A program made the position numbers and the translations under genes. From Acidobacteriota bacterium (GTDB taxonomy: Bacteria > Acidobacteriota > Terriglobia > Bryobacterales > Bryobacteraceae), in NCBI GenBank assembly GCA_029776225.1, contig JAKOTR010000011.1, forward strand, positions 124,001 through 188,000: 64,000 bases of DNA, in the 5' to 3' direction. How positions within the stretch are numbered: position 1 is the stretch's first letter; the number at the start of each line of letters is the position of its first letter. The notes under the pieces are model-generated. The model had not been told where the DNA came from. It saw nothing but the letters and a program-made list of their open reading frames with translations, and ran no database searches. Positions 59,243-61,471 of the stretch are shown piece by piece.

Positions 59243-59296
59243 ACGAACAGTATAGTAACCGGACGGGTCTGCCTAACGGGCATCCGTCGTGCTAAA

Positions 59297-59309
59297 CTCA
59301 GGCTATATT
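59297..59309 (+). promoter_or_regulatory. -10 region of glmS (CTCAGGCTATATT)
   Basis: CTCAGGCTATATT includes the -10 box TATATT (59304-59309). Transcription would start near 59315, about ten bases before the predicted ribozyme cleavage site. The CTCAGGCTAT also occurs twice near 46850. Confidence 0.5.
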
Positions 59310-59314
59310 GCTGG

Positions 59315-59500
59315 GAAAGGCCAAGCGCATGACCCCGCCGGCCGAGGTGTCGGGCCGGAGGCGGGGTGACGAGGCAGAGGGTTCCCGCCCACCGAGGGCG
59401 GGCTAACCGGGGTAAGCAGGCTTCAGCCCTGGGAAAATCGAGAGTTCAGCGGATGCCCTCCGGGTGATCCACCACCCGATCCTTTCCCTCCGACAAACGC
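59315..59500 (+). ncRNA. glmS ribozyme/riboswitch
   Basis: The leader matches the glmS ribozyme core: AAGCGC with predicted cleavage between A59324 and G59325, P2 stem ACCCCGCC (59332-59339) with GGCGGGGT (59360-59367), GACGAGG (59368-59374), GAGGG (59377-59381) able to pair with CCCTC (59456-59460), the segment ATCGAGAGTTCAGCGGATGC (59437-59456), and P4 hairpin CGGGTG/CACCCG (59461-59466, 59473-59478). Glucosamine-6-phosphate binding would self-cleave the RNA and lower glmS expression. A stretch of about 60 bases between GACGAGG and ATCGAG is longer than usual and contains its own hairpin (59384-59402). Confidence 0.85.
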
Positions 59501-59629
59501 TGCGGGGCAACGCCGCCCGGGCAACCGGACGGACAAAGCCGCGGCGAGTGGAGAGTGGCGGCATTGCGCCCGTGCAGGGCGTGTGCGCCGCCCGCACAGC
59601 TATGAACGACATCAGACGGAGGGAAATCC

Positions 59630-61471
59630 ATGTGCGGAATCGTGGGGTATATCGGCCCCAGAGACGCTACTCCTATCATTCTGAACGGATTGCGGAGGCT
59701 CGAGTACCGCGGCTATGATTCGGCCGGGCTTGCGGTGCTGGAAAACGGGGGTATACAGATCCGCCGCGACGCCGGCAAGCTATCCCGCCTGGCCGAGCTA
59801 GTGGACAGTTCTCCCGTGCATGGCCACTGCGGCATCGGCCACACACGCTGGGCGACCCACGGAGTGCCCAACAGCAGGAACGCCCATCCCCACACCGGCA
59901 ACACGGGGAAAGTGGTCGTGGTCCACAACGGCATCGTGGAAAACTATCTCGAACTGCGCCAGGAACTCGCCGCCGAGGGCGCGGTCTTTCAATCCGAAAC
60001 CGATACGGAAACCATCGTCCACCTCATCGAGCGCTACCTTTCGCGCGGCATGGGGCTGGCCGAGGCGGCGCGCGAGGCCTTCGGCCATTTGAAAGGCGCG
60101 CACGGCATCGTCGTGATGTCCGCTCTGGAGCCGGACAAGATCATCGCTGCGCGCATCGGCAACGCCGGCGGGGTGGTGATTGGCTGCGGCGATGGCGAGA
60201 TGTTCATCGCGTCGGACCTGCCGGCGATTCTGGACCACACGCGCCGTGTCGTATTCCTCGAATCGCGCCAGCTCGCCGTCGTGACGCGCAGCGGGTTGGA
60301 GCTGCAAACGCTGGAAGGGGAGCCGCTCCGCTTCCAGACGCACACCATCCCGTGGGACCCGGTTTCCGCCGAAAAAGGCGAGTACCGGCATTTCATGGCC
60401 AAGGAGATTCACGAGCAGGTGCGCTCGCTCACCGATACGATCTCCGGCCGCGTGGATTTCGAGCAGGGCCGCATCCGCCTGCCGGAGTTGAATCTCACGC
60501 CCGAACTGGCGCGGCGCATCAAGAAGATCGTCATCACGGGCTGCGGCACCGCGGCGCACGCGGGCATGGTGGGCCGGATTTTGATCCAACGCATCTCGCG
60601 AATTCCCGTGGAGGTCGAAATCGCCTCGGAGTTTCGCTACAGCGACCCGATCATCGACCGGGACACGGTTGTGCTCGCCATCAGCCAGTCCGGAGAGACT
60701 GTCGATACGCTGGCGGCGATGGAAGAAGCGCGCCGCAAGGGCGCAGTGCTGTGGTCCATCGTGAATGTGATCGGCTCGCAGGCCATGCGGCTTGCCGACG
60801 GGTTCATTTCCATGCAGACGGGTCCCGAGATCGGCGTTGCGTCCACGAAGGCGTTCACGGCGCCGCTGGTGGACCTGTACATGCTCGCGATTCTCCTGGC
60901 GGACCTGCGGGGCAGCCTTGCGGACGACGACCGCCGCTGTCTGGTGAACCACCTCCGCCTCGTTCCCGACCTTGTGGGCCGGTGCCTCGACCGCGATCGC
61001 CAGGTGCAAAGCGTCGCCCGCGCGCTCAAGGACATGGCGCACTGCCTGTACCTGGGCCGCGGAATCAACATGCCGATCGCCTACGAGGGCGCGCTCAAGC
61101 TGAAGGAAATCTCCTACATACACGCCGAAGGCTACCCGGCTGGGGAAATGAAGCACGGCCCCATTGCGCTCATCGACCGGACTATGCCCACGGTGGTCAT
61201 CGCGCCGCGCGACCCGTGGTACGAGAAGATGATCAGCCAGATCGAGCAGGCCAAAGCGCGCGGTGGGCCGGTGGTTGCCGTCGCCACGGAGGGCGACAAA
61301 CTCATCGGCAGCCTCGCGACGTACGTGCTGTGGGTGCCGGAAACGCCGTGGATGCTCAGCCCGGTGATCACCGTCATTCCGCTGCAGTTGCTCGCCTACC
61401 ACATCGCGGCACTGCGCGGGCTCGACGTCGACCAGCCGCGCAACCTGGCTAAGTCCGTGACGGTGGAGTAG
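59630..61471 (+). CDS. glmS: glutamine-fructose-6-phosphate aminotransferase (isomerizing)
   Basis: A 613-residue enzyme making glucosamine 6-phosphate for peptidoglycan and LPS. The Cys nucleophile follows the initiator Met (MCGIVGYIGPRDATPII), the glutaminase domain has RWATHGVPNSRNAHPH, and two SIS domains follow (TGCGTAAHAGMVG; ISQSGETVDTLAAM; VASTKAFTAP; LGRGINMPIAYEGALKLKE; AGEMKHGPIALID). GGAGGG lies 6-8 bases before the ATG. Its leader is the glmS ribozyme. Confidence 0.98.
   Translation: MCGIVGYIGPRDATPIILNGLRRLEYRGYDSAGLAVLENGGIQIRRDAGKLSRLAELVDSSPVHGHCGIGHTRWATHGVPNSRNAHPHTGNTGKVVVVHNGIVENYLELRQELAAEGAVFQSETDTETIVHLIERYLSRGMGLAEAAREAFGHLKGAHGIVVMSALEPDKIIAARIGNAGGVVIGCGDGEMFIASDLPAILDHTRRVVFLESRQLAVVTRSGLELQTLEGEPLRFQTHTIPWDPVSAEKGEYRHFMAKEIHEQVRSLTDTISGRVDFEQGRIRLPELNLTPELARRIKKIVITGCGTAAHAGMVGRILIQRISRIPVEVEIASEFRYSDPIIDRDTVVLAISQSGETVDTLAAMEEARRKGAVLWSIVNVIGSQAMRLADGFISMQTGPEIGVASTKAFTAPLVDLYMLAILLADLRGSLADDDRRCLVNHLRLVPDLVGRCLDRDRQVQSVARALKDMAHCLYLGRGINMPIAYEGALKLKEISYIHAEGYPAGEMKHGPIALIDRTMPTVVIAPRDPWYEKMISQIEQAKARGGPVVAVATEGDKLIGSLATYVLWVPETPWMLSPVITVIPLQLLAYHIAALRGLDVDQPRNLAKSVTVE

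What the first reader, a model, noticed from the sequence alone, without database searches (positions are those of the whole stretch)
59297..59630. glmS ribozyme with an enlarged insertion upstream of an acidobacterial glmS
Conserved core elements of the glmS ribozyme (AAGCGC cleavage site, P2, GACGAGG, ATCGAG/GCGGATGC core, P4) occur in order directly upstream of a gene that starts MCGIVGYIG, at the expected distance. The window suggests Acidobacteriota, a lineage where I do not remember many examples (the class is best known from Firmicutes). Between GACGAGG and ATCGAG there are about 62 bases, much more than in the classical examples, with an internal 7-bp stem (59384-59402).
Basis: partly seen in the sequence, partly recalled or inferred. 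Interest (0 to 1): 0.75.

Follow-up and report, generated by a model that had tools for sequence, protein, structure and literature searches.

The report
Chloroflexota-type glmS ribozyme in an acidobacterium
A self-cutting RNA switch in front of a cell-wall sugar gene (glmS) sits in an acidobacterium but, with its gene, looks transferred from Chloroflexota bacteria, and it carries extra RNA helices that may let the cut block the start of protein synthesis.

Summary
In detail: 59313-59552, upstream of glmS (59630-61471), carries the core of a glmS ribozyme with 62 nt between GACGAGG and ATCGA (9-10 nt in 23 parsed Bacillota ribozymes). Rfam scores it below its cut-off (25.8 vs 37 bits); a covariance model from 59 loci without the window's genus gives 101 bits. 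The insert is a covarying two-hairpin element found in 104 other loci, nearly all Chloroflexota by title. Among Acidobacteriota searched it was found only in the window's genus: 3 of 237 family genomes, no other credible case in a sample of 396 phylum genomes. The window's GlmS nests among Anaerolineae; the genome also has a family-typical GlmS without ribozyme hit: horizontal transfer.

Two further features: the leader 5' of the cleavage site pairs with an enlarged J3/4 (z -11.5; not seen in 23 Bacillota), and the same J3/4 can pair the glmS Shine-Dalgarno (10 bp here). I propose that cleavage frees J3/4 to mask the ribosome site (about 50%; folding support is weak). Chloroflexota relatives also precede glnA. 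New variant of a known kind.

The parts
59290..59298 (+). extended -10-like TGCTAAACT; transcript start probably near 59305 (inference)
   Evidence: by eye; kept as TGCTACACTC in both same-genus relatives
59313..59320 (+). 5' leader strand GGGAAAGG of proposed helix P0, just upstream of the cleavage site
   Evidence: perfect 8-bp complement of 59481-59488; native pairing beyond permuted pairing, z -11.5, n=100
59324..59325 (+). predicted cleavage site A-1 / G1
   Evidence: alignment to RF00234 consensus
59332..59367 (+). P1 stem-loop (59332-59339 with 59360-59367)
   Evidence: perfect 8 bp; P1 of at least 4 bp in 95 of 100
59368..59374 (+). conserved core GACGAGG
59377..59460 (+). P2 (59377-59381 with 59456-59460) enclosing the insertion and part of the core
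   Evidence: 100% of cells paired, 3 of 5 pairs with changes on both sides
59384..59402 (+). insertion hairpin A
   Evidence: 99.3% of cells paired, all 6 modelled pairs with changes on both sides over 96 sequences
59407..59432 (+). insertion hairpin B (CCGGGG with CCCTGG)
   Evidence: 98.4% of cells paired, all 6 pairs with changes on both sides
59437..59456 (+). core ATCGA and GCGGATGC
59461..59478 (+). P3 stem-loop; loop 59468-59472 pairs 59548-59552 as P3.1
   Evidence: helix 4; P3.1 z 10.9, n=99
59481..59492 (+). enlarged J3/4 pyrimidine tract CCTTTCCCTCCG, partner of the leader (59481-59488) or of the Shine-Dalgarno (59483-59492)
59498..59546 (+). P4 with internal loop and GCAA tetraloop (59521-59524)
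   Evidence: 8-bp P4 (59498-59505 with 59539-59546, one G-U) read from the sequence
59548..59552 (+). 3' strand of P3.1
59617..59626 (+). Shine-Dalgarno CGGAGGGAAA, 10-nt perfect complement of J3/4
59630..61471 (+). glmS, 613 aa, Anaerolineae-like

Best explanation
A glmS self-cleaving riboswitch of the Chloroflexota long-insert type, transferred together with its glmS gene from an Anaerolineae-like donor into one Bryobacterales genus. It should bind glucosamine-6-phosphate (GlcN6P) and cut between 59324 and 59325 when GlcN6P is plentiful, lowering GlmS (inferred from family membership). In the intact RNA the 5' leader (59313-59320) pairs with J3/4 (59481-59488): the helix is supported by covariation across relatives. 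After cleavage the leader is held by that helix alone and can be lost; J3/4 is then free to pair with the Shine-Dalgarno (59617-59626) and block translation (complementarity shown, switching inferred, about 50%), in place of or besides RNase J decay of the cut mRNA. The confidence below is for identity, origin and feedback repression; the Shine-Dalgarno step alone is about 0.5.
For: R3 without the genus: 101.3 bits. P1, P2, P3, P3.1, P4 with GNRA loop, plus core motifs. Core and insert kept in the 3 genomes of the genus held, while upstream flanks differ. Insert helices: 98.7% of cells paired against 39-55% when slid; both hairpins with both-sided changes at all 12 modelled pairs (the alignment was fitted to the structure). 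Leader:J3/4 duplex -11.8 native vs -8.9 permuted kcal/mol, z -11.5 (n=100); z -9.6 in 62 non-redundant; shifted controls z -1.2 and -0.9; not seen in Bacillota, z +0.4 (n=23). J3/4:Shine-Dalgarno z -4.0 (n=73), control segment -0.04; 34 of 66 glmS loci have a Watson-Crick run of at least 7 downstream, 22 of these 34 at the Shine-Dalgarno. Transfer: GlmS 73-78% to its six nearest Chloroflexota relatives, 53% to its own second copy; nested in a 21-row clade (19 Chloroflexota), SH-aLRT 100.
Against: No cleavage data. RF00234 stays below its gathering score. Nested equilibrium folding shows only a weak effect: Shine-Dalgarno accessibility 0.324 intact, 0.283 with shuffled leader (p 0.003), 0.269 cleaved (n=70; native above shuffled in 42 of 70), and almost none in the window (0.152, 0.140, 0.130); in G027 and L118 the native leader is no better than a shuffled one. 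The window's lowest-energy intact fold already pairs J3/4 with the Shine-Dalgarno and not with the leader. In the window the Shine-Dalgarno duplex (-18.3) is stronger than the leader duplex (-15.9), and 7 of the 99 other J3/4 bind its leader more strongly than its own. 44 of 66 glmS loci lack a run of 7 at the Shine-Dalgarno. RNase J is encoded (558 bits), so decay alone could suffice. The permutations do not correct for G+C or, except in the non-redundant set, for relatedness. The GlmS tree (quick method, no bootstrap) holds only ribozyme-bearing GlmS and the acidobacterial family, so a donor from an unsampled phylum is not excluded; 4 of its 56 loci (L059, L101, L129, L164) fall on the family's side of the midpoint root.
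Confidence: 0.85

Rival explanations
1. A GlcN6P-dependent glmS ribozyme that works only by the known route: cleavage leaves a 5'-OH mRNA that RNase J degrades (route recalled). The leader:J3/4 helix is only a structural brace, and the J3/4:Shine-Dalgarno match is a by-product of a CU-rich tract.
For: RNase J is present. Only 22 of 66 glmS loci carry a run of at least 7 at the Shine-Dalgarno. Folding shows little change of accessibility.
Against: Native J3/4:Shine-Dalgarno pairing exceeds permuted pairing (z -4.0; control segment -0.04), so the two strands co-vary beyond a shared CU-rich tract.
Confidence: 0.4
2. A glmS-fold RNA that has changed its ligand or lost catalysis in this host.
For: Several relatives sit before genes other than glmS and carry a changed sequence 3' of the cleavage site, GCGGCTG for GCGCATG. 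The host has a second GlmS.
Against: The window has the usual GCGCATG start, sits before glmS and keeps its core in three genomes of the genus.
Confidence: 0.08
3. Binning contamination: the contig stretch is really from a Chloroflexota.
For: GlmS is Anaerolineae-like.
Against: Three genomes of the genus carry the ribozyme before glmS, with different upstream flanks; window and G090 GlmS are 86% identical over 460 residues. The window lies on a 429-kb contig; glmS GC 0.648 against 0.633 in the window.
Confidence: 0.03

Closest known systems
glmS ribozyme, canonical Bacillota type (Rfam RF00234)
   Same: core motifs GACGAGG, ATCGA, GCGGATGCC, P1-P4 and P3.1 layout, position before glmS
   Different: in 23 parsed of 30 Bacillota loci fetched, 9-10 nt lie between GACGAGG and ATCGA and leader:J3/4 pairing is not above permuted; the window has 62 nt with two hairpins and an enlarged J3/4
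Chloroflexota long-insert glmS ribozymes (104 loci here besides the genus itself; some reach RF00234 threshold, e.g. Roseiflexus L091, 76 bits)
   Same: same two-hairpin insert, leader:J3/4 helix, enlarged J3/4
   Different: the host phylum; the window's J3/4:Shine-Dalgarno complement is among the three longest at a Shine-Dalgarno (10 nt, with L124 and L126)
Deinococcus-Thermus glmS variants with extra stems in the core (McCown, Roth and Breaker 2011; recalled, paper not held)
   Same: extra stems inside the core, as I recall the abstract
   Different: could not be compared here

Membership tests
glmS ribozyme class (RF00234) | covariance score at or above gathering threshold 37 | tested here: not met
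   25.8 bits. A curated cut-off, not a biochemical feature; 12 of 18 loci with the same ribozyme type also miss it
glmS ribozyme class (RF00234) | conserved core strands and P1, P2, P3, P4 in order | tested here: met
glmS ribozyme class (RF00234) | pseudoknots: P3.1, P2.1, P2.2 | tested here: inconclusive
   P3.1 met (5 bp; z 10.9 over 99 loci). P2.1 (CGA with UCG) and P2.2 (CGC with GCG) are present by eye with register recalled, too short to test
glmS ribozyme class (RF00234) | located in the 5' UTR of glmS | tested here: met
   glmS ATG at 59630, TIGR01135 759 bits
glmS ribozyme class (RF00234) | GlcN6P-dependent self-cleavage | not testable with these tools
   needs an in vitro assay
Chloroflexota long-insert subtype (named here) | two covarying hairpins in the P2 loop | tested here: met
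   R3 (59 loci, none from this genus; 58 Chloroflexota by title or recall, L099 titled Actinomycetes) aligns the window end to end with 101.3 bits; pair counts
Chloroflexota long-insert subtype (named here) | leader:J3/4 helix | tested here: met
   8 bp, -15.9 kcal/mol; 7 of 99 other J3/4 bind the leader more strongly

The most novel reading that the evidence does not exclude
A structural subclass of the glmS ribozyme with an expression platform of its own: the leader 5' of the cut and the downstream ribosome site compete for one J3/4 tract, so self-cleavage itself releases an anti-Shine-Dalgarno and turns translation off. In Chloroflexota the same ribozyme also controls nitrogen assimilation (glnA, a glutamate-synthase-like gene), linking amino-sugar status to glutamine supply, with a changed sequence next to the cleavage site in the glnA type that may mean another ligand.
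Probability: 0.4. Interest if true: 0.85.

Novelty: new variant of a known kind. Interest (0 to 1): 0.62.

Why it matters
Known glmS ribozymes are described as lowering expression by mRNA decay after cleavage (passages of PMC10043782, and PMC11477304). A covarying helix between the piece that is cut off and J3/4, with J3/4 also complementary to the Shine-Dalgarno, would make cleavage a direct translational switch, testable with a handful of mutants. The case also looks like a metabolite-sensing ribozyme that moved between phyla with its gene while the host keeps a second copy without it, and it shows that Rfam's model misses 12 of the 18 loci of this subtype that I tested. The glnA and glutamate-synthase-like associations would widen the class beyond glmS.

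Tried and rejected
Whole-window Rfam at gathering threshold found only a tRNA. RF00234 over 200 family genomes (15 at E up to 1, 0 over cut-off) and 396 phylum genomes (3 at E up to 0.1, 0 over cut-off); of the 15 family loci only those of the window's genus (L001, L006, L010) hold a glmS start, and the two new phylum hits L049 and L050 hold none. R1 over 396 phylum genomes: besides the window two hits of 25.0 and 23.8 bits (G358, G503) have no glmS start and, apart from GACGAGG, no core, so I call them chance. These searches of over 40 genomes ran with stricter filters that lose weak matches. Pattern scan of viral contigs gave 3 matches, dropped by the same core filter as below; GlmS relatives in viral contigs reach at most 48% identity, so no phage carrier was seen.

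Rows dropped before counts: leader:J3/4 test used 98 of 105 loci (5 without a located cleavage site, 1 too short, 1 with N) plus window and G027; the Shine-Dalgarno test 73, the accessibility test 70 and the downstream-run test 66 glmS loci (start codon found and far enough downstream; 3 over 560 nt left out of the folding). For R3 I used 59 of 105 loci and left out the nearest relatives on purpose. Bacillota control: 30 of 78 matches were fetched, 23 of these parsed. R1 found 96 of 97 sources given (L129 missed). GlmS tree: 80 of 104 proteins (at least 560 aa; L118 left out as a duplicate of G090); G027 has only 170 aa and is not in it; 21 of 28 family loci were caught by my start pattern. 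The alignment took L010 on the wrong strand and was discarded.

Considered and set aside: window-specific hairpin 59557-59594 as part of the switch (absent in both relatives); a terminator platform in the window (no T-run seen by eye after P3.1).

Literature: glmS ribozyme alone 333 papers, 40 listed and a four-term search, listings only apart from the papers named below. glmS ribozyme + Acidobacteria 0; + glutamine synthetase + Chloroflexi 0; glmS + riboswitch + Chloroflexi 2, passages of both read, nothing on this; glmS ribozyme + glnA 7, listing only except passages of PMC3766115; + Shine-Dalgarno + self-cleav 18, 15 listed, listing only except passages of PMC10043782; + Deinococcus 11, 10 listed, listing only except passages of PMC2258182 and PMC3766115; glmS + ribozyme + Anaerolineae 0. 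Passages also of PMC11602151 and PMC11477304. McCown 2011, McCown 2012 and Collins 2007 are not held and are recalled only, so I cannot say that the Chloroflexota insert is unpublished.

Full report
Observation. The RNA lies directly before a gene that NCBIfam names glmS (TIGR01135, 759 bits). The low score reflects the model: of 18 loci with the same ribozyme type that I gave to Rfam, 6 pass the threshold. Model R3, built from 59 loci (58 Chloroflexota by title or recall, L099 titled Actinomycetes) without the window, its genus or its nearest relatives, gives the window 101.3 bits (E 1.1e-21); the next best place in the 64 kb has 13.7 bits. R3's loci were picked by a pattern with the core motifs and aligned with R2, which descends from R1 built on the genus, so the test is not wholly independent.

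Anatomy. P1 59332-59339/59360-59367, P2 59377-59381/59456-59460, P3 59461-59478, P3.1 59468-59472/59548-59552, P4 59498-59505/59539-59546 with a GCAA loop, core GACGAGG, ATCGA, GCGGATGC, cleavage site 59324/59325. [quoted passage not shown] The 62 nt between GACGAGG and ATCGA hold hairpin A (59384-59402) and hairpin B (59407-59432). In Bacillota, 77 of 119 genomes have a ribozyme above threshold; of 30 loci fetched, 23 could be parsed and these have 9-10 nt there.

Relatives. On 96 aligned sequences the insert hairpins and P2, P3 are paired in 98.7% of cells against 39-55% when partners are slid, with both-sided changes in 21 of 23 pairs; the alignment was fitted to that structure and so leans towards it.

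Distribution and transfer. With R3, 3 of 237 genomes of the family match, exactly the three genomes of the window's genus that are held. With R1, 1 of 396 sampled Acidobacteriota genomes (the window's) matches credibly; I take two weak hits as chance. RF00234 passes its threshold in 0 of 396. The window's genome has two GlmS: the window copy, 73-78% identical to its six nearest Chloroflexota relatives, and a copy on contig 17, 53% identical to it, that groups with the family and has no R3 hit upstream. In a tree of 80 GlmS the window and G090 sit inside a clade with 19 Chloroflexota rows (SH-aLRT 100) and the family's GlmS form another clade (100); 4 of the 56 ribozyme-bearing rows fall on the family's side of the midpoint root, and no other phylum was put into the tree on purpose. 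The three genomes have different upstream flanks, which speaks against contamination; mobility or rearrangement after arrival is inference.

A second helix and a possible switch. The leader GGGAAAGG (59313-59320) is the exact complement of J3/4 59481-59488. Over 100 sequences the native leader:J3/4 duplex is stronger than permuted pairs (-11.8 vs -8.9 kcal/mol, z -11.5; 62 non-redundant: z -9.6); moving either strand by 24-30 nt removes the effect (z -0.9, -1.2), and shuffling J3/4 gives -8.2. Sequence changes look compensatory, e.g. CCATGACG/CGTCATGG in L134 and L150, GCAGGTG/CACCTGC in L159, GGAACGGC/GCTGTTCC (one G-U) in L133. The pairing is not universal: some loci rank low among permuted partners (e.g. 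L092, L098, L076), in L098 because my P3 parse took in the J3/4 tract. Bacillota show none (z +0.4, n=23). J3/4 is also complementary to the Shine-Dalgarno: 10 nt in the window (59483-59492/59617-59626), 7 in both relatives. Native J3/4:Shine-Dalgarno duplexes exceed permuted ones (z -4.0, n=73; control -0.04), and of 66 glmS loci 34 have a Watson-Crick run of at least 7 downstream, 22 of them at the Shine-Dalgarno. Leader and Shine-Dalgarno overlap on 59483-59488, so the two helices exclude each other in the window.

Mechanism. Shown: the sequences, the covariation of insert and leader:J3/4 helix, the complementarity to the Shine-Dalgarno. Inferred from the family: GlcN6P binding and cleavage. 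Proposed: cleavage leaves the leader held only by 8 pairs; when it leaves, J3/4 takes the Shine-Dalgarno and translation stops. Against it: nested folding gives small changes (0.324 intact, 0.283 shuffled leader, 0.269 cleaved, n=70) and next to none in the window (0.152, 0.140, 0.130), and in G027 and L118 the native leader does no better than a shuffled one; the window's lowest-energy intact fold pairs J3/4 with the Shine-Dalgarno, not with the leader; 44 of 66 glmS loci lack a run of at least 7 at the Shine-Dalgarno. Such folding cannot hold the pseudoknots or co-transcriptional order, so it neither proves nor excludes the switch. RNase J is present, leaving the known decay route open.

Beyond glmS. 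Of the 105 loci, 79 have a glmS start within 900 nt; of the other 26, 16 precede a glutamine-synthetase-like frame and 3 a glutamate-synthase-like one by motif, 1 has another frame before glmS, 6 run off or show no clear frame; for one of these six, L109, the same place in the whole genome precedes a glutamate-synthase-like frame (L177). I tested five proteins: L072 and L133 are GlnA above cut-off; L061 and L169 match glutamate synthase below cut-off; the frame before glmS in L077 weakly matches an etherase family. In a census of 251 Chloroflexota genomes, 53 have 68 matches, classed by motif: 51 before glmS, 5 glnA, 1 glutamate-synthase-like, 7 an Ada/Ogt-like frame, 4 other, of which 3 look like the Ada type (two Ada-like proteins and L201 tested). 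Of 10 Chloroflexota genomes searched singly, all picked because they carry one, 9 have two copies. The glnA type has GCGGCTG after the cleavage site in 14 of 15 loci with a located site.

Verdict. A real glmS-class ribozyme by sequence and structure, a new variant of a known kind, in an unusual host by transfer, with an extra covarying helix that I did not find described in the passages and listings seen (searches listed under Tried and rejected).

Noticed in passing
L051, L053, L072, L074, L106, L107, L111, L121, L122, L130, L133, L135, L141, L151, L153, L166: Long-insert glmS-type ribozymes before glutamine-synthetase-like genes in Chloroflexota; 14 of the 15 with a located cleavage site carry GCGGCTG instead of GCGCATG after it.
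   Followed up: partly
L061, L109 (same place as L177), L147, L169 (same place as L186), L223: The same ribozyme type before a glutamate-synthase-like gene.
   Followed up: partly
L216, L231, L235, L237, L239, L241, L242 (and probably L240, L243, L245): Ribozymes with changed core letters (8 of the 10 show GCGGCTGG or GCGGCTGGA in the stretch printed), in several followed by GGAAGGGC plus a T-run and a terminator-like hairpin, then an Ada/Ogt-like gene; J3/4 CCCTTCC could pair GGAAGGG.
   Followed up: partly
L201: Ribozyme upstream of a frame that best matches sugar aminotransferase families (below cut-offs).
   Followed up: no
G000:C17:97723-99576 (L046): Second, family-typical GlmS in the window's genome, without a ribozyme hit upstream.
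   Followed up: yes
L099: Long-insert ribozyme in a MAG titled Actinomycetes bacterium; no frame of 90 aa or more in the 741 bases downstream.
   Followed up: no
window 59557-59594: G+C-rich hairpin between P3.1 and the Shine-Dalgarno, absent in both same-genus relatives.
   Followed up: no
L106 5160-5339 (-): 6S RNA (RF00013) just upstream of the glnA-type ribozyme, 49.1 bits against a gathering score of 46.4.
   Followed up: no
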